From: Bugula neritina
Taxonomy: Eukaryota; Bryozoa; Gymnolaemata; Cheilostomatida; Bugulidae
Assembly (NCBI GenBank): GCA_964035545.1
Contig: CAXIUT010000100.1
Coordinates: 1 to 36,083 of the forward strand
Reading direction: 5' to 3'
Length of the DNA: 36,083 bases
Shown here: positions 1-36,083 of the stretch, piece by piece
Numbering within the stretch: position 1 is the first letter of the stretch
Layout of the letters: every line of letters begins with the position of its first letter
Made by a program: the position numbers and the translations under genes
The notes under the pieces: generated by a model
Told to the model about the DNA's origin: nothing
Database searches by the model: none
What the model saw: the letters and a program-made list of their open reading frames with translations, nothing else

Positions 1-81
1 CCCAACCCCAACCCCAACCCCAACCCCAACCCCAACCCCAACCCCAACCCCAACCCCAACCCCAACCCCAACCCCAACCCC
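1..81. repeat. Left telomere, C4A2 repeats
   Basis: Thirteen and a half CCCCAA units, perfect throughout. Read outward on the G strand the tract is (GGGGTT)13GGG, 81 nt. The junction with unique sequence, read outward, is ...ATCAA then GGGG. The repeat is that of Tetrahymena and its relatives, not the G4T4 of hypotrichs. It caps the 5' end of the window, so this is a chromosome end and not an arbitrary cut. Confidence 0.97.
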
Positions 82-4102: not shown

Positions 4103-6889
4103 ATGGAGAAGACTCTTAAGTAAAATTTTAGTGTATTTGGCCGTACAACTCTAAGAAAATTTGGAAAAATGAAGATCTATATCTAAGGGCTATCTCGTGT
4201 ACTCTCCTTATTATCTAGATTGGAGCTGATCTAACTACTAATTTGGTCATTTTATCTCCTCAACTAATCACTCTTCATGATTAAGACTTGATTCGATTCT
4301 AAGACTGCTATAATACCTATCGTATATTTGATTTGAGGTAGATTACGGTCGAGAGTATGTCGGTAAGAAGAAGCGGGCGGATCACTTGATTGAGATTTGT
4401 CATCGATTGAATAATAAGGTGTATGTTGATAAATTAAATAATGAGATCGAGAAAGAGGACTGTTTGAAATACGATGTGATAATATTTTGTGACATTTACG
4501 ATATAGGAAGAGTGATGGAGATCGATAAGTTTGTAAGAAGTCAAAAAAACTCTAAAACTGTAATTATGTATACCATTCAACTTGGTTTTTTTGGACTTTT
4601 TGCGACTGACTTCGGATAGGAATGGGAAATGTTCAATTCTGGAGTAGAGTTCTCTAAAATCAATATAAAAAATATCACTAATTAATAAAAAGGAAAAGTT
4701 ACTACTCTTCTGCCTCATTAATACAAAACAGGTGATTTTGTTGTTATTAAATACGTTTAAGGCATGAAATATGTCAATAATGATGCTCGTCCTGTAAGTG
4801 TGATTGATTAATATACATTTTTGATCTAAGATACTCGTAATTTTGGAGTTTATACTAAAGGAGGTATATGCTAGAAGGTGGATTTAGTATAAAAATTGAA
4901 ATTTATCTCACTTGAAGAGCAATTAATCAAAAGACATTCTGATGTTATGTTGTTTGCCAAGGCAGTAATCGCATTCTTCCAAAGTAATAGTCGAATTCCA
5001 GGTTTATTTGATTAACATCACTAATAAGAATCAATGAGACTATTGAAACAATTATCTTAAAATATAAATCAGAAATATGACTAAGTTCGAGCAAGAAATT
5101 TCTTCAAAATATGCTAATACAGTTTTTATCCCTTGGTAAACATGTTAGCAGCAATAACTTCACTGTAAGTGGTAAAGTGTACGGGCAAGTATCGTCCAAT
5201 AAATAGTCCATTGGTTTTTGATTGGTCGAATAAACTATCTTTCTAGGTGAAAAAGAAGATGGACAATCAGATAGTTAATATCATAGATACTATTACTTTG
5301 CAGAAACTGGCTAAATTGCAGTATTAATGATGATATGTAGGATAGGGATAGTGGATGATGGATATCAGAGTTTATAGTTGTTGAATTTATTGTATTCATG
5401 TTCGATAGCTGATAAGAATCGGGTTATTTTGGTTGGTTTGGAAAGCATACATGAAAATAAGTAGTCTGATGGGCTGATTTTAAAAGCTCATATAAAGTAT
5501 CAGGTGGCAAACGATTTATACAAAAATAAGAAGACTGAAACAATACCGTGTTCATTATCTTTTTCTAATGACTACTTGCTGACAGATGTTTGGAAGAAGA
5601 TAAGGATATTGATCAATACTACTGACAAATTAAATGACTATGTATATAACAACGTGATATGGAATCAAATCGATATCCTTGATTCTGAAATAAATGAGTT
5701 GCAGGGGATCATGAAAATATGTGCGGCTAATAAATCGCAACTCAAGCAGAGAAGCTAAAATAAAAATATCTAGGGTATGATATCTAATATAAAGGTCATA
5801 AGTAGTTGGTGGATTACAAGGGATGTGTTTAGAAATCTCTTGATGAGTTTAGACTGATTTTTATAGATATATTTGAAGATGTGAGATGTTTTTTCAAGAT
5901 AGGTGGGGTGTATATCGATCGAGTTAAGATGGATCCATTGCGTAAGAATATATTTTTGTTGATAATATGTTGTTTGGAGGATAGTTCTTTTATTGAGCCT
6001 TAAAATATAGTTAAAATGTGTAAATACATTTTTACAGAATTATATCCTACTGTACAATTCGATAGTAAAGATCCCTTGGTTATGGATTATATCAGATCCA
6101 TATATTTCTTACTTTGCTGGTTTTTATACTAAAAAATAAACTAAAATATAAGAAATTAACCATTATTTTGATTAGTTTATCAATACCAATTTTGATTAGT
6201 CTAAATTAACACAAAAATAAAAATATGATATTGCCTTTGCTAAGCTAGCAATGGGCAATAGTCTTACTATCCCTTATATGTCTTTGAATTAATTGTTCAG
6301 AAAAGAACATACTGTTAAACTTATTTGGAATGGAAGTCAAATTCATGCCAAATCAGCTGCTATTGACTAAGATTTTAGTTCTAAAAAGTTTTATAAGTAC
6401 TATTTCAGAAAGTTAAAGCCTTGTCCTTTTATCAGTCAAATTTTAAACTCATTGTTGCCTATTGCTATTGTTGAGAGTGTTTATGGAAGGTTAAATAACA
6501 TTACTATAGATATGATCGATGGAAAGGCAACTTTTGTTGATTGTCCTCCTCCTAAGCCATTTCAAGCTGCTTCTGGGATAACTTTGATACCTAGTGTGTG
6601 TACTGAGTGGACAATAATAATAATAGAGGGGCCTAAGAAGGTGACTCAGATAATATAGAGATTTAATTTTATGTAGCAGATAAATGTGACTAAAATTCGT
6701 TGTGATAATTCTGATTTATATGATAGAAATTCAAAGAAGAACCCATACTTATAACAAGTAATAGACAAGATACCAGTGATAGCTCAAAATCGAGAAGACC
6801 GTAATTCTATTTAGTTGCATATTGAGGCTGAAGACAAGAATGGCAAGTTATGCGAGGTGAGTCGTGTGAAGTATGTATTTGGTTCTTGA
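4103..6889 (+). CDS. Divergent ubiquitin-activating enzyme (E1, UBA1-family)-like protein
   Basis: About 895 residues after removing 20-nt introns at 4199-4218, 4322-4341, 5321-5340 and 5847-5866. E1 layout is visible: an inactive adenylation half with KIYIQGLSRIGADL and LITLHD (residues 25-53), then KYDVIIFCDIYDI and YTIQLGFFGLFATDFG; a second Rossmann region near 393; a C-terminal ubiquitin-fold domain ending CEVSRVKYVF. In true E1s the second half binds ATP through GAGAIG and DxDxIExSNLNRQ and carries a Cys in a P-x-C-T motif. Here these read IGIVDDGYQ, a stretch without the Asp/Arg residues, and ISNIK with Ser541 at the Cys position, so it may be a pseudoenzyme. A further frame change is needed around 6050-6135; a 19-nt GT..AG fits but removes a conserved FDSKDPLVMDYI match. 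A 20-nt intron-like stretch at 6871-6890 makes the C-terminus uncertain. Confidence 0.75.
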
Positions 6890-22604: not shown

Positions 22605-25185
22605 TCATCTTCTCATTTTGAGTTTATCTTCCATAAAGAAGATGAGATCTTTGACGTCTGATCTATCTTTGAATTTGTAGATGGTATCAATTAGTTTGTT
22701 GATTGGACCTGACTCCATGATTCTGACTACTTCAGGTTTGAATTGGGCATTATTAGAGTAAAAGAGAGCGCAGTCACAGACTAAAGTCAGACAGTTTCTG
22801 AGATAATCCTAAATAGATATATATATACCACTGTAGGTTTAAGTTGAACATCACAACTTTTGACAATAAAGGTACATATAAATGGGAAATGATTTGCCAT
22901 TTTAGGGTTACAAAATTCATGGTCATTCACTGCAAAAACTATGCAGTGATACATTTAAATCAGTGATTATTTAAGTTCTTAGGCATATTGTTTTTAATTT
23001 TATAATTCTGAAAAACTATAAACTGCATTGAAACAATTTTATACTATTTCTAGGAGAGTATCAATGTAATTTTAGGTTTGCTTTTTGAGACCTAAAGCTA
23101 AATCTCCAAAACACTTTAATATTTATGTTTTTAGCTATCTGTCTAGATTTTGTTTCATGTATAAAACTAGCTGTTGAAATATTTTTGACATCTAAGGAAT
23201 CAAATAATGATCATGATTTCTGGCAATATCCATAATACATGATAGACTTGTTTTAAAAATTATTTTTTGATCATAGAGCGTGAGTCCATTCAGTATGACT
23301 GGCCAATATTTTTAGAATTTATTTTTAAAATCTTTTCGATAGCAAATAGCTGCTGCACTGATCATATTGATGCTTTATGATTCTGTTCCATAGGAACGTA
23401 GATGTTGATCGATAAGGGAAAAGACCATCTCTTTTAGTTGTGCTTTTGGAAGATGATTCTTAGAAACAGCGAGAAGACAAGTATGAATAACACTCATGAG
23501 TTGATCAAGAACAATATTTTTGTCTGGAATATTCATTTGACTGAATTCTTGATATTTCATAATTAAATGTAGAGCTAGTTAATTGATGATGGGAGTATTA
23601 TTAGTTGCCATTATGATGTTCATTAAGATTATGACTGCTTTGTCGAGCTAATCTTTATTAGCTGATTTAGATAGTCCATCAAGCATCATAATAAGCAATT
23701 ACTTAATGATTTGTTCAGGATCATTGGCAATTGGTTCAGGAAATTGTTTTAAAACTTAAGTAATATTACCTAAAATAGTCAAACTTAAAACTCTAACGAG
23801 ATCATCTGTGCTTGAGCCCATTTTAAGAAGATATTCAAAAATAAGTTTTATATCTTGATTTCCCATGAAAACTTCTGGAAAAAATTATGAGAGAGTGACT
23901 AATCCGCTTAAAGAATTTCTAATAACAACAATTTATTTATCTTTGAGAAGGTTTATGAAGAATCCAAATGCTTTTCTAAAGTTATCTTAAATCTAATTTT
24001 TATCAGGATAATTAACTAGACAACTAAAAAGTAGGACTGTTGCTTGTCTTTACCCCGCATTATTACTCTCCACAACAGTTTATACTCCATTTATTAACAT
24101 ATTTAACATCTATCTATCTGCACACTACATGAAAAACGTCAGAGTTGAAACTGCTGCTTCTCTTAGTTCTGAAAAATCAACATCCTTTTCATTAGTAATG
24201 ACAATTAGACTCATAATTTACGTTTGTATATCTTTATATGAATTACTGATATAATTAGTTAGTTTGTTATTTTGACTATTTATTCTTTCGTTTATTTCCT
24301 GTGCTCTTTCAAGATATTAGGTAGCTATTGTCTACCAGAGAGAAAGAGCATGTAGAGAATCATCGTTTCTGAGTTGCATGTGTTTGATAGTTATTTCCAC
24401 TATTGAATTTATGTAAGGATCAAGCAGATGATAACAGTGTTTGCAGTATTAATATAAAATTTCATAAACAGCACCTCGAATTTTTTTGTTTTGAATGCAT
24501 CTCATCATAAATTTGATAAGTTCATCACTGAAAGCTTTTGTTTCAAGGATCGAACGAAGAAATTGGATACTATTTCTTAGAGCATTTAGAGAAATTTATA
24601 CGATTTATCCCTATTTTTAAAGTCCAAAGAGAAGACTACCTAAAATTTCTTTTGAAGTATCTTGTTATATTTTAGATTGTGTATTTTTAAGTTCTTAGCA
24701 GATATAGCCCAAAGTAATAACTGATGCTCTTCTAACATTGTAGTCACTATGATGAGAATTTTAAGCAAGTGTAAAGATAATATCGACCCATTCGTTTCTA
24801 GGGACTTAGATTGATACTATCTGCGCTATTGCATTTGCTCCTGCTTTTATTATTACTATATCGACTTCTATCAGAGTTGAGAGAAGCATTTATTTAATTG
24901 TTTGTTTTACATCTCCCGCAATTCTATCCCAAAAAAAGGTGCCTTGCTAATCCTTCGTAAAATAAAGTTTACTTTGAATGATATCATACGCTTGAAGACT
25001 ATGGCTGAAGAGTGCCTAGAAAAGAGTGTTTTTTGTTGATTAGAGATAATTTTAGCTAGGGTGAGGAAAAATTCTGTGTAATTATGAGAAGCTGCTTGGT
25101 AGATTTGTTGCTCTGCATCTTCTCTAATGCTTTTGTTCTCAACTTCTTGAAGTGCTTTGCAAATGAGATCTTCAATGTGATTCAT
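22605..25185 (-). CDS. KPNB1: Importin subunit beta (karyopherin beta-1)
   Basis: The nuclear import receptor that carries importin-alpha/cargo through pores and is released by Ran-GTP. 846 residues after two 20-nt introns (24953-24972 near the N-terminus; 22809-22828 near the C-terminus), against about 870 in other eukaryotes. HEAT-repeat landmarks: the N-terminal REDAEQQIYQAASHNYTEFF (importin-beta N domain), VPRNEWVDII, NVRRASVITLGYICQELK, KQNLDRQLKTQILKCFGDLA, and the C-terminal DYLRNCLTLVCDCALFYSN. Both introns must be removed to restore these blocks. Many Gln are TAA/TAG. ATG 25185 is 136 bp from the internal telomeric tract at 25322, making this gene terminal if the tract marks a chromosome end. 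Confidence 0.93.
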
Positions 25186-25321
25186 CTTAGTTATAAATCT
25201 GATTTTAAGCGCTTATCATAATAACTCCGCTAACTATTAACTACTCTCTAATTAAAAAATCAATATTTTCTTTATTATTTTAAATACTATCTTAACTTTG
25301 ATCACAAGTTTATTTTATCAA
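25186..25321. promoter_or_regulatory. Importin-beta upstream region
   Basis: 136 bp of AT-rich sequence between the importin-beta start codon and the internal telomeric tract. It must contain the importin promoter. The junction reads TTTATCAA then GGGGTT, sharing ATCAA with the left-telomere junction. No other element recognised. Confidence 0.4.
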
Positions 25322-25402
25322 GGGGTTGGGGTTGGGGTTGGGGTTGGGGTTGGGGTTGGGGTTGGGGTTGGGGTTGGGGTTGGGGTTGGGGTTGGGGTTG
25401 GG
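25322..25402. repeat. Internal telomeric tract 1, (GGGGTT)13GGG
   Basis: A perfect 81-nt G4T2 tract in the orientation of a right chromosome end, yet followed directly by ordinary sequence (AAAGAGAAGATAAAAATAAA). It equals the left telomere in length and phase. No C4A2 tract follows, so it is not a head-to-head fusion of two capped ends. See findings for the competing explanations. Confidence 0.97.
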
Positions 25403-25533
25403 AAAGAGAAGATAAAAATAAAAAGTATTTTGATGAGTTTAATGATTCAAAAAAAAGTATTTTCAGATGATTTGCAAAAAAAGTATTTGATGAGAAAGTT
25501 AAGTTAGATTAAATTAATTATTTCTTTGGGGAA
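25403..25533. other. Spacer after internal telomeric tract 1, with imperfect repeats
   Basis: 131 bp between the tract and the stop codon of the next minus-strand gene. It holds three imperfect copies of an AAAAGTATTT(T)...GATGA motif (about 25421, 25452 and 25479). No gene seen; plus-strand readings through the tract (Gly-Val repeats) look like by-products. Confidence 0.5.
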
Positions 25534-26694
25534 TCAAGGAAGGTTAGGAGACAGTGAGTCACTTTTATTGTTCATGTTTTAACTTTCTTCTTTACTTTTG
25601 ATAAAGAATTCCATTCTTTTTTGTTTTTGGATGATCCAGCTGTGCCAGGTTAGGAAGTCGATAATCGGATATGAATTTTAAAGATGAAGAAGAGGATATT
25701 TTTTTTGACTGTTTTATCCTTTGAATTCTTCTTTCACGATCATTGTGTTTGGCTGAAGAAGAATTTAATCATTTTAAATGTTGTTGCTGTATTATTATTC
25801 GCTTTCATCTTTTTCTGAGATTCTTTATTGTTTAAGATAGGCCTCTTTATCGTAAATAGATTGAGAATAGTTCACTTGAGGAGGTTGAATCCACATTTTA
25901 TCCTGAGACATATTGAATTAATTGAAGGTATTATTATTAGATTGTCTCCATTAATAGACTTTTTGAGATAAGTTTAGTTACTTTTATTTATTCTTTATAT
26001 CAATATCTGAAAATTTAAGAACTAGTTCTTTTCTGAGATCTTCAATTATCTGGAGAGTTTTAAGATACTCATTCTTCTTGATAATGATATATTTGCTTTT
26101 TTGATAAAGCATTTTCATTGCTTATTCTTCTTAACCATTCAAAAAGAGAAGAATAGAACCAATAGAATAATTCATTTATAGAATTTAATCTTGTCTGAAG
26201 TGAATAAAGTTACTGTTAGTCGTTACTCCTATTTCTGATTTATATTTATCCATTTTACTATTAACTTCCATACAAAACTGTTAAAGTGACCAAAGAATGT
26301 TACAAGGTGAAAGGTACCACTTCAAATAGCTGATAATGATGAAATAATAGACTCTTGAGTTTCTATATGGGAAGAATCTTGTGAGCATTTCTTCTTTATC
26401 ATCATTGTTTAGTCTGCTACAGACTACATTTTTGATGATGCCTATGTACTTCTTATGACAGTTATTGGTACTCCTTTTGTACTTTCCTTTCTTCTTGTTA
26501 ATGGTTTCTATCTTTTATTTAAAACGCATTTGATCAACAATCTGTTTCATATGTTGCTGGTTGTAGGATTCTGGTGGCCTTGGGTCGAATGGCATTCCTC
26601 TCATCGAAGAATAGTCATATGGATTAAAAAAAGATGGGAATTCACCTAGATGAAATGGAGTTGCATCTCCCATCTGACTCATTGAATTATTCAT
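25534..26694 (-). CDS. Unidentified 386-aa protein
   Basis: One exon of 387 codons, ATG 26694 to TGA 25534-25536, open only with TAA/TAG as Gln. The N-terminus is Met/Pro/Phe-rich (FHLGEFPSFFNPYDYSSMRG, FDPRPPESYNQQHM), followed by a basic region (NKKKGKYKRSTNNCHKKYIG). The middle is aromatic (VYYFIIISYLKWYLSPCNIL) and then helical with heptads (YLKTLQIIEDLRKELVLKF). The C-terminal third is Gln/Asn-rich. No domain recognised. The aromatic stretch is weakly hydrophobic and probably not a membrane span. Composition and frame length support a real gene. Confidence 0.6.
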
Positions 26695-27211
26695 CTAAAT
26701 TTATGTCAAGCTTTTAAAAAACATTTGCAATAATCTATGCTCTAAAAAAGAGCTTAGCTAGTATTTAGTTTAACTTATAAAAGTGAAAAGAACAGCTCTA
26801 AGGGCGCACTTTATTGTATATAAAAATTGATAATATACAAAATCTTCTTTCGTTTCTCAAATGAAATCACAAAAAAATAATAATTGATCAATGTTCAACA
26901 TGTATCAATAAAAGTTCACTCCGAAAGCTCTTATTCATTTGATTTTGTTCTGAGGTTTAAAATGCAACTGAAAGATTTGATTTATATGATTTCTTATTTA
27001 ATGATATAAATTTATGAAAAGTCATTTACAACATTTTTAAAGCATCTTTAAACGAAAAAGAATTCTTTAATAGCTTTTATTATTTATTTTAGACCTTGGT
27101 TATTTAAGAACTTGATTATAATAGTTGAGATAAGATTAAAGTTGATAAAAACAAATGATAAATTTTAAATGTTTCAAAACAATAGGTGAAAGCAAAGATT
27201 TGTCCTGAGCT
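26695..27211. other. 517-bp intergenic stretch, nothing certain
   Basis: Upstream of the 386-aa gene and downstream of the MRM2-like gene, one of the two largest gaps in the window. It contains a plus-strand ORF of 75 codons (26962-27189, opening MQLKDLIYMISYLM) that is hydrophobic and low-complexity, with no support as a gene. No tRNA, snRNA or terminator-like structure could be recognised by eye. The gap is long for this chromosome, so a small non-coding RNA gene is possible. Confidence 0.4.
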
Positions 27212-27949
27212 TCACTTTGATAATTTATTCAATAAAACATCAATATCATTCTTCTTCTAAATATTTTAAATTTGAATTTATTGTAAATTCACTAACAAAT
27301 TCTAAAGATTCAATTTTCTTTCTTTTTACCTACAGATTAGATAATGCTAAGCTGATTATGATCTTGATGACTTCGGTTTATAGCGTTTCACGTCCTTAAA
27401 AAAGTATTTGAGCAACCAAAAAAGCGACCTTTGCATCTATCCTTAAATTGTTTTCATGATGAGATTACAGCTCGCAGAACCTAGAAGCAGATTTAGCTCT
27501 AAAGTACATTTATTGAGCTAAATGGCTTCAAGATGAGTTTAAAACAGAGTTCCACTAAAATTGGGTGCCATATCGCTTACAATAACATCAAAATGTTCGT
27601 ACTTTTATTTTAATAAATGATGAAGTTTAGGATTTCGAGCATCACAGTTGTAAAAATTGATTCCTTAGAGCTACTTCATTGGAAGAAGATCTACAGAAGC
27701 TACCTATATTTTTGGATTGATTATTTTTAATACTTGACTCCAACTTCCTGGAGAACAGCCTAGATCAAGAACTTTTGAGGCATTCTGAATAATAGAAAAC
27801 TTTTATTCAATTTATAGAAGTTTAAAAGAAGCTCGACTTCTATATCCTAATTATTGAGCTTTTTTAACATGAGAATCATTAATATGGTTTAAATACCATG
27901 ATTTTTTGTTTTGAGATAAGAACCTCTTGGTGATAGTTGAAAGGATCAT
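27212..27949 (-). CDS. MRM2: FtsJ/RrmJ-family rRNA 2'-O-methyltransferase, MRM2-like (mitochondrial)
   Basis: SAM-dependent ribose methylation of large-subunit rRNA. 245 residues, one exon. The N-terminus MILSTITKRFLSQNKKSW looks like a mitochondrial presequence (Arg/Lys, no acid) and runs into the family start YLNHINDSHVKKAQ and LGYRSRASFKLLQI. The SAM motif is VLDLGCSPGSWSQVL, then VIVSDMAPNFSGT, LIMKTIQG and YKPKSSRSQSAQHYLIC. Of the K-D-K-E catalytic tetrad, Lys (FKL), Asp (SDMAP) and Lys (IMKTI) are present. The fourth position, Glu in SREVYIV of E. coli RrmJ, reads Gln encoded by TAG. The start is fixed by the targeting-like N-terminus; 59 bp separate it from the C2 gene stop. Confidence 0.88.
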
Positions 27950-28008
27950 TGATAAATATAAAGATAATTAATACATTGATTATTAATATAAAGTTAGATT
28001 GTAGATAA

Positions 28009-28806
28009 TCAAAAATTGAATGGAAGTATTTCAAAGTGATATTCAATTTTAATAGTCCCTGCCATTTTTTTATCAAAAAACAAACTAAATTGTCTTTGTT
28101 TTGGTTTTTCACATGGAATAAGAAGTCCTTCTTTTAGCATTAAGATCTATACTGAGCAAACTAGATCATCATTTAGTGGATCTTCATCAAAGACATTGAT
28201 CATAAGTTTGCTTTTTCCTGATTATTTTACTTGAAGTTCTATTCTTTCAGTCCAAACACAATGCTTTCCTTCATCGATTTTAGCTTTAGTTGAATAGGTT
28301 TATTTATCAAGTTTTATTTGAAGATAAGGATCCATTTTAGTCAACATCTAAGTATCTCTTATTAGATCAACTTCTATTGTTTCAATAGTAAACTTTCCTT
28401 GAATGTTATTAAGGTAAATAATCTCCAAGTCAACTTGTAACATATTGTCTATTTTCAAATTGGAATCATTTCTTTTATCTTTTTATATTTTTTTTATCAT
28501 GATTGCTTCAATAACATGCTTAACTCTTGGCATTTAAGATAATTTTTTCAAAGGAAATCTTAGTTCTCCTTGATATCCACTTTTATCATCACTAAATTAC
28601 AACTATAAGCTTTCCTTTCCACCGCTCTAAAACATGTGAACCTGATTGATTTGTACAGCTCCTTCTGAAAGATCAGGAGTATCTAAGTAACCTTGATCAG
28701 CTATCCTGGTCATTAGTTTGGAAGGACCTAGTTGATACTTTCCCATTGGAATAACATCATTGATTTTGAGGTAGACAAGCCCTTTGATTTGATTATCTTA
28801 TTTCAT
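28009..28806 (-). CDS. C2-domain protein, 265 aa
   Basis: One exon, ATG 28806 to TGA 28009-28011. The C-terminal half is a C2 domain: LQVDLEIIYLNNIQG at the first strand, DPYLQIKLDKQTYSTKAKID, CVWTERIEL, and LMINVFDEDPLNDDLVCSV, with Asp residues in the usual calcium-loop positions (MDPYL; FDEDPLNDD). The N-terminal half (GLVYLKINDVIPMGKYQLGP, ELRFPLKKLSQMPR) may be a second, degenerate C2 fold. C2 domains bind membranes, often in response to calcium. No transmembrane segment, so probably peripheral. The gap to the upstream RING gene stop is 67 bp. Confidence 0.75.
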
Positions 28807-28873
28807 TTTCGTTGATATTAATTATAGATGAGTAAAAAGTTACAAAAATTATGACTAATGTGAAGATATTGAC

Positions 28874-30140
28874 TCATTGAATAAAGGATAGAGAATCATT
28901 TAGTGTATCCATACTAATGAATACATATATTTTGGATCCATCAGCGAATTATTAAATTTAGTTAGATCCTAGTTGTAGACATTGTTTTTTCGTTTAATTT
29001 TATATTTTTATGATTTTTACTAGACTCATATATCGACATCTAATGATATCTCCCTGTGTAAAGCTAAAATCATTTTTTCTAACTATTTTATACTTGCTTT
29101 CATGGATATCTTTTCTCTTTAACTATCCATACTTATTAACAATATAATCTAAGGAATTAATGTTCATATTGGAGCAGAATCCAAGAAGTATATTTCCCAT
29201 CATTTTATTTATCTTTATATTCCACTTAATAGAGGCAAAGCTGTCAGTATAGATTGGACTGAGAATATAAAAATGTAAGAAATCAAATTTTTATTTGGAC
29301 TAGTTGAAAGATGGTTTGATAAGAGTTGGATTAGGAAAGGTAAAATGAGTAGTAAAAGTGGTATAGTAGGATATGAGTAGATCTAGAGGTTAGCCTACTA
29401 CTAATGCTTTGGTTATATTTTACATTCTATCACATTTGGAATTGAGTTATTGAATTCCTTGTGAAATATTGGCTACTTGGCTGCCTATTGTGCCGATTGA
29501 GTTGGCATAGCAATCAAAGGTTCTTTCATATTTTTATGATAGTTGATTAAAATGTATATGTTAATGTAGATATTTAACTTTTGGCATACTTCCTCCACAA
29601 TAACCACATTAAATCATATATTTTTGACAGGAATTTATATGAGAAGGATAATTTTTAGAAAGAATTTGACCTTTACATCCTCTGCAAGGCCTTACTAAAT
29701 TTTATAATTTCTACATTTGAATTGGCATATTGCCATGTGAGTATTAACATCTCCATAACTCAAAACCTACTTGCATCCGTTGCTTGAGTTGGGACAATGC
29801 AAATGGAGGCTATCTAAAATGGATTTGAGGATCGGAGGAATCTTACTACTGACAAACAATCTTTTACACTGGGGGCAAACTGAACTGTTTGGCTCATGAG
29901 ATATACATTTTTTAAGCCAGGACTAAATGCAGAAACTGCAGAAAGCATTCTGGCATCCGTTCTGAGAGCCACAGGTCACAGGCTACCAAACAATATGATG
30001 ACAGATGGAACCTAACTATCTATTTTAATACAAATAAGGTGATCAACTTCGATAAGAGACTCAACTACAAGACTTCGTTCGAGAGAAATTTGATTTTATT
30101 CTTCTAAATCGGAGTCTGAATCTTCATTGTACTTAAGCAT
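28874..30140 (-). CDS. RING / TRAF-type zinc finger / SPRY-like protein, probable E3 ubiquitin ligase, 408 aa
   Basis: Two 20-nt introns (30012-30031 and 29695-29714), both restoring zinc-binding cysteines to frame. RING finger from Cys37: CSICHHIVWQPVTC, CQNAFCSFC, then CPQCK, the C3HC4 layout that recruits E2 enzymes. TRAF-type fingers follow: CPNSSNGCKQVL with THMAIC, then PCRGCKGQIL with HINSC and CGYCGG with H. A short helix (GSQVANISQGIQQL) leads to a C-terminal SPRY-like domain (MMGNILLGFCSNMNI, FSFTQGDIIRCRYM, IYVFISMDTLNDSLSF). RING-TRAF-SPRY combinations are numerous in ciliates. The substrate is unknown. It is the only RING gene here; the E1-like gene at 4.1 kb is in the same pathway, but linkage is probably accidental. 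Confidence 0.85.
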
Positions 30141-30229
30141 GTGTCAATAATAATAAATATATGTATTGATTGATAATAAGTTAATTGACTTAATATAGTT
30201 TAATAGATGATTTAATTTGTTGATTTTAA

Positions 30230-31669
30230 TCAAATAGCTTGCCAGTTCTGAATCATGATTTTTTGAAGAGCCATGAGGGCTTGTTCTCTGACTGATTTAT
30301 CTTCGCTGTATCTGGCTTTTTCCATGATGATTTCTTTAATTTGTTGGGACTCAATAACTCTAAATTATATCATTTTTACGTTTTTCCTCTTGGATAAAAT
30401 CTACAAAATTATCCAATATCATAGCATGCAATAGCTACATTGAGAACTCTTTTGCTGTTCAGTAAAAACTTAAGTTTTCTAAATATAATTATGTTTACTT
30501 GATAAGATGATACTCATTTGCTTCGAATTTGAGGGCATTTTCTTTCCAGAAACGTTCATTATGAACAGAACTCCATTCCAGCATATCTGCATTGATTTAT
30601 TTGACATATTTATCAAAAGAACTTAAAATTCTGATATTGCTTTACAAAATAGATCCAACATCTTTGATAGCATTGATTAAATCTTAATCCTTGATGTTTC
30701 CCTTCAAAATTGTATCAATTATTTTTAGAAGTCTGTTGTCAATCATGAGTTAAAGGCAACTTTGACTGTCTTGAATATTTTTAAATATCATAAAAGCAAC
30801 ACGAGTGATTTTTTATCGAGAAACTTTTTGTAAAATTTAACAGATAAACTTGATAACTCCGAATTTGGGAATTCCAATGAATTTTTAAATTGTATCTTCC
30901 AAGAAAGAAAGCATCCAAACATTGAGTAGAGTATAATAGATAAGTTGAATATCGTTTCCACTTCGATTAAGGCATTCCAGTAGGAAAGCTCCACCCCCAT
31001 ATTCCATGAAGAGTTCTCCTAAATGACGATGCTTATTAAGATGAACAAAACAAGAGACTAATCCATAATCAGAAATGAAATCTTTTTGGGATCTAAATAG
31101 ATGGAAAAGTACTTCTTTTGGAGGAGTTCGAGAAGGAAGTTTTTTTGTTCATTATAAAATTGTTCATGAGGAAGTTATCCTAAAATAATTGAGATAACTC
31201 TATATGTAGCAAGAACTTTTAGGGAAGAATTTTCTTCATCTTATCTTTTCTTTTCAATCACAGTTGCAATTCCTTTCAATTTTGAAATTAGGTTGTTGTA
31301 TTTTCCTGCTTTCATCTCTTAAACTATTGTTCTAAGAGCTTGTCTGTCCTCTGTTAGAACGGCATCAAGAGTGGTGAGGACATACTCCATAAGATCACCT
31401 TCACGATTGAGGCAGATCACAATATCAAGGAAAGCTTAGGTAAAGGCTTCTGGATCTTCTGCAAGAAGTTCTTTTTGTCCAACTTTATTTCTTTGGTTGA
31501 ATTTGAGGAAGTTATCAACAGTTTTAGCTTTGAGAGCTGACTCTTTACTGGAGGTATTGAACTGACTGAAGCCTAGTTTGACTCTGTTAGAGATAGCATT
31601 AAGTTCTTTTTCCTTTTGGTAGAAGCAGAGAGAGTAGTTAAAGTACTTTTTCTAATCTGGTTTTTGCAT
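30230..31669 (-). CDS. ATP6V1H: V-type proton ATPase subunit H
   Basis: Subunit H (Vma13) is the armadillo-like V1 regulator that couples and inhibits the vacuolar proton pump. 459 residues (human about 483) after three 20-nt introns: 31093-31112, 30479-30498, 30360-30379. Recognisable blocks: FLDIVICLNREGDLMEYVLT with TLDAVLTEDRQAL, SSLKVLATYRVISIIL, WMLSFLED, GVIKFICQILQKVSRQKITR, VHNERFWKENALKFEANEYH, VLNVAIACYDIGQFCRFYPR, and the C-terminal SVREQALMALQKIMIQNWQ. Each intron is needed to reach the next block. The start ATG 31669 is 105 bp from the internal telomeric tract at 31775. Confidence 0.93.
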
Positions 31670-31753
31670 AAGATTTGATAATAGTCAACATGGTAGATTT
31701 TATTGATTTAAATATATCTTTCAATTAAATTCATAAGAATTATTCAAGGCAAA

Positions 31754-34156
31754 TCATTTTTAATTATCGAATATGGGGTTGGGGTTGGGGTTGGGGTTGG
31801 GGTTGGGGTTGGGGTTGGGGTTGGGGTTGGGGTTGGGGTTGGGGTTGGGGTTGGGTCCTGCACAAATTGTAAAGCAAGAAGCCAGTAAGGTTCCATAGCT
31901 TATTAAAATCAAACAAATAAGATTGTAGTAAACAGAATTAAGCATACCTACACATAAAGAATTTCTCATATCGATAATAGAATCTCCAAGAACTCTACAA
32001 TCAAGTCCATTAAAACTACCTGCAGTCAAATTGTAGTATTTATTAAAAGCAGATTAAAGAATTGTCTGATATATACTGATATTTGCCTGAGTGCCTTTGA
32101 ATGCTGTATCATAATCATTTATTTTTGTTTGAAGGGTTGCTATATCTGCATTAACACCAGTCATTTTAGTCTTTCTTGGAACATTCCAATTATTTTATAA
32201 ATTTACAAGATAGTTAAAATAGTTACATGTGTTAGCACCATATCTACTAGCTAAAGTAGTTGCGAATGAACTATCTCCTGAAGAACTCTGAAATTGCTGC
32301 ATAATTTAATAACATCCAAGAGGGCATTTAGTCAAGTCAGATAGATCAAGGCAGGCTGCATTCTGTGCCTTCCCACCAGGACAAGTAAAGGTATCATAAG
32401 AAGGCATCCAAGAATCTCCGTTTACATTAATAGTATCACAAGTAATATCAAGTGGAAATGCTATTGTCCTAATAGCAGTGAAGAAAGCTGAAGTTGTTGT
32501 ATCTTGAACATCTAGAAGTTGTGCATTCATAACTTTATCTACAGTAGATGTCCCTGAGGTAAAGGGATTTGTTAGATTTGCTGTAGAATAACTCGGAATA
32601 ATTGTATTTAGTCGCTGGGCATTTTGACTGATAGTAAGTAGTTAGGCAAAAGAAGAATTTAAGGACGGACTAATTTTGTCCATAACATATCCAGTTCCAT
32701 CTGCCATGCAGTTTGAGTAGAAACTTCCTAATTAGCTGAACCCAAGTTTTGTGAACACTTCATTAGTCCCTACTCCAGTTGAAAACTTTTTATCAATGTA
32801 TCCACAGACTTGAGAAAGATTGGGAGCTATCAAAGCCATTATGATCATTATAGAAAAAGATAAAAAAGCAAGAAAGAAAAGGAATGCACAAGCAAAATAC
32901 ATGAATAATCTAACTTTAACAACAGAAAAGCAAGCTAGAATGATAGAAGCCAAAAATCCAATGATAGAAAGAGCAAAGAAGGCTCCATAAAATGCTTTAC
33001 ATAAGATAAGCATTTGATTTAGATTATCTTGATCCTGAGTTATAATAAAACTACATCAAACAAGTATGACCATTTATTGATAAAACTATTTAAGTTACTT
33101 TATAAGGCACTGATAGAGGTGATTGAATCTCCAAATTGAGTTCGAACGACAGGTTATGTGGTAGTTACCAGATTATTATAGGCAGCTATCATTGGATCTA
33201 TCGCATCGTTTATTTATTTAAAGATAGTTGTAGTTGTGCTATCTATATTTCCCAAGATAGTAGTTGAACTATTTAATGGTCCATAGTAAAGTTATTTGAA
33301 CTGAGAGGTAATGCTTACGTAGTTAGTTCCAACATTATCATCTGTGAATGCATTTGTATAGACACTATTAGAATAGGTTGAATAAGTGGATGCTAGAGAT
33401 AGTTGGAAAATGCTTTGTCTTGAGGCAATATCTGCAGCATTTCCTAGTGACTGATTTATTTTAGAATTACATTAGAATTTTGAGTCCAAATTGTGTCAAA
33501 ACTTGAATTAAAAGTTTTTATATCAGCAGACAAAGGTGAAAGACCAACAAAAAAACGATTATCTACAGTCTATGATAATTTTCCATTCAGAGTATCATCT
33601 CCTACTGCAGAAGATTTACAGCCCAGATCATTGTAGTAATATACTATTTAAACTCCTTTCATAATACCGAGAAGGGCACCGACCATAATAGATAAATAGA
33701 AAAAAACAGCAACGTATGATGTCCATTTTAACTAGCATTTTCCATACATTTATTTATCAGGTTTACGGCATTTATGGCAAACTGGATGTTTTTCTAGATT
33801 AAGAGAGAAATACCAGGCCAGACACAGCAACAGCAGAGGGGAATCCAGATAAAAATTAATACAACAAAGGCTACTAGATGTGGCATAATAATTATTAGAG
33901 TGGTAGAGTTGATGGTTGTATAGTTGCTATCATAAAGGATGGCCTAAATCTCAGAATCAGTGAGATAGTTGTATTGTTTAATGTAGCTGCTGCTTTATGA
34001 GATTTAGCTGTCTGTATAGTTGCCCATGTAGTAAAGACATGTGGATTAGTGATAAGCATTTCTTGATGTTGAGATGCTTGTGTCTGATACAGAAATAGCT
34101 GAATGAGATATTGCGACTAGAGATGTGATTAAAAAGAGTTTTTGAAGAAATTTCAT
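31754..34156 (-). CDS. Prominin-like five-span membrane glycoprotein, reading into telomeric tract
   Basis: 780 codons with three 20-nt introns. It starts MKFLQKLFLITSLVAISHSA, a clear signal peptide. First span AFVVLIFIWIPLCCCCVW, a cysteine-rich loop (HPVCHKCRKPDK), second span (YVAVFFYLSIMVGALLGIM), a long extracellular loop with N-glycosylation-type sites, spans three and four (YGAFFALSIIGFLASIILAC; YFACAFLFFLAFLSFSIMII), a second large Cys-containing loop, and a fifth span (LICLILISYGTLLASCFTIC). This order, including the Cys-rich loop after span one, matches prominins of membrane protrusions and cilia; tweety-type proteins are an alternative. Residue 747 is followed by (Pro-Asn)13-Pro from the telomeric tract and then IFDNQK and TGA 31754-31756. 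Deleting the 81 nt also leaves the frame intact, ending CAGIFDNQK. Confidence 0.72.
31775..31855. repeat. Internal telomeric tract 2, (GGGGTT)13GGG
   Basis: A perfect 81-nt tract, identical to tract 1 and to the G strand of the left telomere. It is preceded by CGAATAT and followed by TCCTGCACAAATTG. It lies inside the reading frame of the prominin-like gene on the minus strand, where it encodes 27 codons of alternating Pro and Asn. 105 bp upstream of the V-ATPase H start codon. Confidence 0.97.
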
Positions 34157-36003: not shown

Positions 36004-36083
36004 GGGGTTGGGGTTGGGGTTGGGGTTGGGGTTGGGGTTGGGGTTGGGGTTGGGGTTGGGGTTGGGGTTGGGGTTGGGGTTGG
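36004..36083. repeat. Right telomere, G4T2 repeats
   Basis: (GGGGTT)13GG, 80 nt, perfect, running to the last base of the window. It matches the left telomere's repeat and length within one nucleotide, so the window spans a whole chromosome. Confidence 0.97.

What the first reader, a model, noticed from the sequence alone, without database searches (positions are those of the whole stretch)
25322..31855. Two internal telomere tracts identical to the chromosome-end tracts
Seen: 25322-25402 and 31775-31855 are both exactly (GGGGTT)13GGG, 81 nt, same orientation, no mismatches; the left end is the same 81 nt and the right end 80 nt. Neither is followed by C4A2. Inference: (a) alternative telomere-addition sites, giving nested chromosomes that share a left end, captured in one consensus; (b) an assembly or amplification chimaera of telomere-capped fragments; (c) true insertion of mature-telomere-length blocks into an otherwise continuous chromosome, as in break repair or germline-encoded tracts. 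Equal length argues against random interstitial repeats. The lack of a facing C4A2 tract argues against simple end-to-end joining.
Basis: partly seen in the sequence, partly recalled or inferred. Interest (0 to 1): 0.92.

Follow-up and report, generated by a model that had tools for sequence, protein, structure and literature searches.

The report
Telomere tails misplaced inside assembled contig
The two telomere blocks inside this ciliate contig are almost certainly ends of shorter versions of the chromosome that the assembler wrote into the longer version, so they mark ordinary alternative chromosome ends and are not real internal telomeres.

Summary
In detail: 25322-25402 and 31775-31855 are each exactly (GGGGTT)13GGG. 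They are not peculiar to this contig: 78 such internal tracts were listed in 38 small contigs, and whole-assembly counts point to hundreds. Three facts identify them. (1) 65 of 78 stop at ...TTGGG, the phase of real chromosome ends; 8 more read GGGG, as expected where the next native base is G. (2) Of 30 contigs with one-way tracts, 29 have them forward; in 8 scaffolds orientation switches, and a run of N stands at all 5 switches examined of 10. Biology cannot know contig orientation; an assembler can. (3) At one tract (C11) a minisatellite found nowhere else in the assembly continues on both sides, so there the flanks are native neighbours. Best reading: a Paramecium-like macronucleus with alternative telomere-addition sites, whose overlapping minichromosomes were merged into artificial long contigs, with telomere tails of shorter forms kept inside. 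Whether a tail was inserted or overwrites native sequence is unresolved; base composition favours overwriting. No reads were available, so molecules ending at or crossing a site were not seen.

The parts
1..81 (-). left chromosome end, CCC(AACCCC)13
25322..25402 (+). internal tract 1, (GGGGTT)13GGG; read as the telomere tail of a shorter chromosome form ending at 25321
   Evidence: by analogy with the tracts
31775..31855 (+). internal tract 2, (GGGGTT)13GGG; read as the telomere tail of a shorter chromosome form ending at 31774
   Evidence: by analogy with the tracts
36004..36083 (+). right chromosome end, (GGGGTT)13GG
22787..25185 (-). importin-beta-like gene left of tract 1 (exons joined by eye, approximate); start codon at 25185, 136 nt from the tract, so tract 1 is outside the gene on this side
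   Evidence: main ORF 22787-24889
25534..26730 (-). ORF right of tract 1, its stop 131 nt from the tract; no Pfam match
30788..31669 (-). V-ATPase subunit H-like ORF left of tract 2 (start 105 nt from the tract)
31857..33013 (-). ORF (last part of a predicted membrane protein, by eye) that runs into tract 2; it stays open through the tract because 81 is a multiple of 3, and stops at 31754
   Evidence: no match above Pfam's cut-off

Best explanation
The contig is an artificial merger of overlapping macronuclear minichromosomes of a ciliate whose chromosomes end at alternative sites. In the cell, some molecules end at about 25321 and 31774, capped with about 80 bp of G4T2, while others run on. 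The long-read assembler joined the forms through shared sequence and kept the telomere tail of a read from a shorter form as a 3' overhang, so the tail now stands inside the contig. Shown here: tract ends mostly have the phase of mature chromosome ends; tracts are one-way in most contigs, with N runs at the switches examined; flanks at one site (C11, not in the window) are native neighbours. Inferred: existence of ending and crossing molecules, the assembler step, and that the tail overwrote about its own length of native sequence rather than being inserted.
For: Phase: 65 of 78 listed internal tracts end TTGGG and 8 GGGG; the 7 telomere-bearing contig starts printed all begin CCCAACCCC, the same phase. 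Orientation: of 38 contigs listed, 29 forward-only, 1 reverse-only, 8 mixed; the 8 mixed ones are 57-418 kb long, and a run of N lies at 5 of 5 switches examined, 10 switches in all (200 N at four, 116 N visible at C20 where my fetch began inside the run). Contiguity: 40 of 40 copies of a 20-mer minisatellite unit lie in C11, one left and 39 right of its tract; a TTTA array stands on both sides of a C35 tract. Spacing median 10.0 kb, n=47, like the 8-16 kb minichromosomes of Paramecium bursaria (PMC7702705). No second copy of either window junction found in the assembly.
Against: No reads, so neither ending nor crossing molecules were seen. Contig C24 (54 kb) shows only a reverse tract in the listings and was not checked for a gap; the 29 forward-only contigs were not all read for gaps. 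Contiguity is shown at C11, not at the window's sites. The assembler is unknown. For the sub-claim of overwriting: at C10 a gene finds its stop 4 nt into the left flank if the tract is simply cut out, and the C11 repeat register also fits a simple cut (by eye); both favour insertion.
Confidence: 0.86

Rival explanations
1. Real internal telomere blocks in macronuclear molecules: a capped chromosome end was later joined to a broken end of another piece (break repair), giving A-telomere-B molecules.
For: Tract ends keep the phase of mature telomeres, as a joined capped end would; A-tract-B is what the contig literally reads.
Against: One-way orientation (29 forward-only to 1 reverse-only contigs) with N runs at 5 of 5 examined switches; contig strand is arbitrary to the cell. 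Many such joins would be needed. At C11 A and B are native neighbours, which random joining would not give.
Confidence: 0.05
2. Chimaeric contigs: unrelated telomere-capped chromosomes concatenated by the assembler.
For: Each internal tract looks like a complete chromosome end; the right-hand piece lacks its own C4A2 start. Contiguity of the flanks was not shown at the window's own sites.
Against: A minisatellite unique to C11 spans its tract; a TTTA array spans a C35 tract. Two pieces that both begin with C4A2 cannot be overlapped through a G4T2 end (reasoned). Scaffold joins of capped pieces look different here: G4T2, 200 N, C4A2 (three of three seen from both sides).
Confidence: 0.06
3. Germline-encoded or old interstitial telomeric repeats kept in the macronucleus.
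For: Perfect repeats in fixed places.
Against: End phase GGG in 65 of 78, no sequence decay in the window tracts, and contig-dependent orientation. No germline sequence was available to look at directly.
Confidence: 0.03

Closest known systems
Alternative telomere addition in Paramecium bursaria (PMC7702705; sections 5, 7 and 17 read, other passages seen)
   Same: C4A2/G4T2 telomeres, GC near 28-29%, minichromosomes of 8-16 kb with highly variable ends; reads merged into 'artificial long contigs'; very short introns (a likely 20-nt GTA..TAG intron in C20).
   Different: Here only the assembly is seen, with tails left inside it; the species was not identified.
Alternative telomere addition sites (ATAS) of Blepharisma stoltei (PMC9942806; section 5 read, other passages seen)
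   Same: Telomere-bearing reads at many internal positions, so that macronuclear chromosome boundaries cannot be defined.
   Different: CCCTAACA repeats, another genetic code, average molecule about 130 kb.
Alternative fragmentation isoforms in Oxytricha (PMC6937825; passages seen)
   Different: Mostly gene-sized chromosomes, G4T4 telomeres (as given in PMC7599177, passages seen).
Tetrahymena breakage at chromosome breakage sequences (PMC7599177; passages seen)
   Same: Telomeres of G4T2 added de novo.
   Different: No breakage sequence found in the window or in 176,023 bp of other fetched ciliate loci; spacing here is about 10 kb.

Membership tests
alternative telomere-addition sites (Paramecium/Blepharisma kind) | telomere of the organism's own macronuclear repeat with a mature end at an internal position | tested here: met
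   tract repeat equals contig-end repeat; end phase GGG in 65 of 78
alternative telomere-addition sites (Paramecium/Blepharisma kind) | molecules that end at the site and molecules that continue through it | not testable with these tools
   no reads held
alternative telomere-addition sites (Paramecium/Blepharisma kind) | both sides are native neighbours in the longer form | tested here: inconclusive
   met at C11 and suggested at C35; no marker to test it at the two window sites
alternative telomere-addition sites (Paramecium/Blepharisma kind) | several sites per region, kb apart or clustered | tested here: met
   median spacing 10.0 kb, n=47; clusters such as C53 11524/11688/12415
Tetrahymena-type programmed breakage | 15-bp chromosome breakage sequence at the site (in forms that are not cut there) | tested here: not met
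   0 in window, 0 in 176,023 bp of other fetched ciliate loci, some overlapping; if tracts overwrite native sequence, a breakage sequence could have been lost
end-to-end chromosome fusion | G4T2 meeting C4A2 | tested here: not met
   no facing tract in the window; seen elsewhere only across N runs
interstitial telomeric sequence | orientation independent of contig strand | tested here: not met
   forward in 29 of 30 one-way contigs
interstitial telomeric sequence | present inside single molecules | not testable with these tools
   no reads held

The most novel reading that the evidence does not exclude
The macronucleus really carries mature-length telomere blocks inside its minichromosomes, made by joining capped ends to broken ends, perhaps as intermediates of chromosome-end remodelling.
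Probability: 0.05. Interest if true: 0.85.

Novelty: new member of a known kind. Interest (0 to 1): 0.22.

Why it matters
It explains a striking feature as a recurrent assembly signature, warns that genes beside such tracts may be truncated or carry false Asn-Pro, Gln-Pro, Gly-Val or Trp-Gly repeats, and gives a way to map alternative chromosome ends of a ciliate from an assembly alone: each tract would mark one alternative end. If real internal telomeres were shown instead, that would be very surprising.

Tried and rejected
Tried without result: a search of the assembly with 12 kb of window (not scored); relatives of an adenylate kinase and of the V-ATPase H ORF in viral contigs (none confirmed); PDB and Pfam for the C40 protein that runs into a tract (0 matches; one match below cut-off); a codon-based coding score at 8 junctions (too weak; replaced). 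A paper search for the GGGGTTT repeat did not name the second organism.

Considered and rejected: C1-C9 as the germline of the same ciliate. They hold no match to the window junctions. Of 44 tubulin hits there only 1 covers the whole profile, and 28 of 44 have no in-frame TAA/TAG, while all 4 hits in small contigs cover the profile and 3 of 4 contain TAA/TAG. This is suggestive, not proof; germline genes can also be split.

Insert or overwrite: results on both sides. For overwriting: in 27 junctions the left flank is AT-rich over its last 80 nt (GC 0.165-0.228) while the right flank starts at 0.306; the right 60 nt are richer than the left 60 in 24 of 27, Wilcoxon p 5e-5. An adenylate kinase 8-like gene begins abruptly at the C20 tract: its best PDB relative has 52 residues before the matching point, and a direct join offers 16 after an in-frame ATG (counted by eye, introns not considered). 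For inserting: C10 stop codon at 4 nt; C11 repeat register (by eye). Perfect tracts that end in GGG have lengths that are multiples of 3, so reading frame cannot decide at the window's second tract.

Mended on recount: one search counted sites too, some of which can be variant repeats in a contig's right-end tract (C39 75784 is one). One search uses sites only; its counts are the ones given (one search had 34 forward-only, 1 reverse-only, 8 mixed; median spacing 9.4 kb, n=62). Odds of two rivals were raised by 0.01 each, and the best explanation lowered by 0.01, because of the unexamined switches and the C11-only contiguity test.

Full report
What is there. The two tracts are exactly as described, and no other internal ones were found in the window. 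The window is the whole of contig C98, one of 295 contigs. C1-C9 are large: C1, C2, C4 and C9 are 35.6, 33.6, 24.8 and 10.9 Mb, and hits in the other five lie beyond 12 Mb. The right end of C1, the left end of C4 and an internal stretch of C3 beside an N run carry arrays dominated by GGGGTTT. Tubulin hits in C1-C9 look split by introns (1 of 44 covers the profile), unlike the 4 in small contigs. I take C1-C9 to be another organism and the small contigs (C10 onward) to be the macronucleus of a ciliate that reads TAA and TAG as Gln; the species was not identified. Of 8 small contigs whose starts were printed, 7 begin with C4A2; C295 does not.

Not peculiar to this contig. In the whole assembly the pattern TTGGGGTTGGGGTTGGGH, which needs a non-G after the tract, occurs 403 times forward and 85 times reverse (it also hits variant repeats inside tracts, contig-end tracts and a few arrays of C1-C9, so the number of tracts is lower). 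Contigs read whole or in part show forward tracts at C10 (3), C11 (2), C99 (1), C200 (1) and a degenerate one at C50; none in the first 10 kb of C97 and C295.

Tract ends are mature ends. A pattern that lists each tract's last bases gave 78 different internal tracts in its first 100 rows, after dropping repeated rows and one tract at a contig start; 65 end in GGG, 8 in GGGG, 4 in GG, 1 in TT. The listing needs three perfect last repeats and an A or C within 7 bases. Real contig starts read CCCAACCCC, the same phase (7 of 7 telomere-bearing starts). GGGG is what GGG followed by a native G would give. So most internal tracts are whole telomeres down to the terminus, as at the end of a read.

Orientation betrays the assembler. 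Among the 38 contigs of that listing, 29 hold only forward tracts, 1 (C24) only reverse, 8 both. The 8 mixed ones are 57-418 kb long. They have 10 points where orientation switches; I examined 5 (C15, C20, C39, C40, C55), and each holds a run of N: 200 at four, and at C20 116 visible where my fetch began inside the run. At C39, C40 and C55 the gap is flanked by G4T2 on the left and C4A2 on the right; at C15 and C20 only the right side was looked at, and it is C4A2. One N run, at C58, does not mark a switch. Thus the tracts seem to point one way within a gap-free piece, and the scaffolder flipped some pieces. A process in the cell cannot depend on the strand in which a contig is written; a layout step that keeps a read's 3' overhang can. 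That some long-read assemblers build contigs by appending the suffix of each next read is recalled, not checked; the assembler used here is unknown.

The flanks are neighbours. In C11 the tract at 5253-5309 lies in a minisatellite array. Its unit TCATTAATAATACTATTGAT occurs 40 times in the whole assembly, all in C11, once left and 39 times right of the tract. In C35 a TTTA array stands on both sides of a tract. For the window's own sites no such marker exists; both junctions are single-copy in the assembly. Tract 1 lies between the start of an importin-beta-like gene (ATG at 25185, 136 nt away) and the stop of the next ORF (131 nt away). Tract 2 lies between a V-ATPase subunit H-like ORF (105 nt) and an ORF that runs straight into the tract.

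Inserted or overwritten. Base composition is lopsided: over 27 junctions with clean flanks (9 from contigs read at length, 18 from the 20 stretches; tracts beside N or with short flanks dropped), the left flank has GC 0.165, 0.215, 0.183 and 0.228 in the four 20-nt bins nearest the tract, the right flank 0.306 at once; 24 of 27 have the richer right side. If breaks fall in AT-rich intergenic stretches, about 80 nt of the right half is missing, which is the length of a tract. An adenylate kinase 8-like gene at C20 seems to lack its N-terminus. Against this, C10's gene finds a stop 4 nt away on a simple join, and the C11 register suits a simple join (by eye). I put overwriting at about 0.6.

Mechanism. 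A Paramecium-like macronucleus breaks its chromosomes at variable places and caps them. P. bursaria has 8-16 kb minichromosomes with C4A2/T2G4 ends, highly variable addition sites and GC 28.8%, and its authors merged them into 'artificial long contigs' with FALCON (PMC7702705). Here the spacing from contig start or previous tract, in forward-only contigs, is median 10.0 kb (n=47; the listing is partial, so true spacing is smaller) and the window's GC is 28.0%. Blepharisma shows the same phenomenon under the name ATAS (PMC9942806). Tetrahymena-type breakage sequences were not found. That the ciliate is P. bursaria or near it is a guess from these traits.

Verdict. The sites are probably real alternative ends, an ordinary thing for such a ciliate. 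The tracts as internal sequence are most likely not real. I saw no paper describing this assembly signature, but my searches for it were only, in open-licence papers, mostly seen as listings.

Noticed in passing
G000 C1 right end (L001-L005), C3 near 17.88 Mb (L006-L008), C4 left end (L020): Large chromosomes of what I take to be a second organism carry arrays dominated by GGGGTTT, more than 9 kb at the start of C4 and one inside C3 beside an N run; an unusual telomere-like repeat whose owner I did not identify.
   Followed up: partly
L053 (C20:41900-44300), 65 nt right of the tract: A likely 20-nt intron (GTA..TAG) in an adenylate kinase 8-like gene, as short as those known from Paramecium (recalled).
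   Followed up: partly
L012 (C11:5164-7533): A minisatellite array of more than 2 kb (period 29 or its multiples), its unit found only in this contig, interrupted by a tract near its left edge.
   Followed up: yes
window 31754-33013 (-), 31703-32269 (+) and 25012-25470 (+): ORFs read through the tracts and so gain false (Asn-Pro)n, (Gly-Val)n or (Trp-Gly)n stretches; gene predictions here would be wrong.
   Followed up: partly
left flanks of tracts: C10 9690 and 19623, C200 9933, window 25322 and left end: Several telomere junctions follow TTCAA or TCAA at or within 4 nt (such as ATTCAA|GGGG); none of the 27 sampled left flanks ends in C. Possibly a preference of the site; not tested statistically.
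   Followed up: no
P0001-P0007: Proteins from public sequence collections 55-83% identical to parts of the C20 adenylate kinase, probably fragments from related ciliates predicted with the wrong code.
   Followed up: partly
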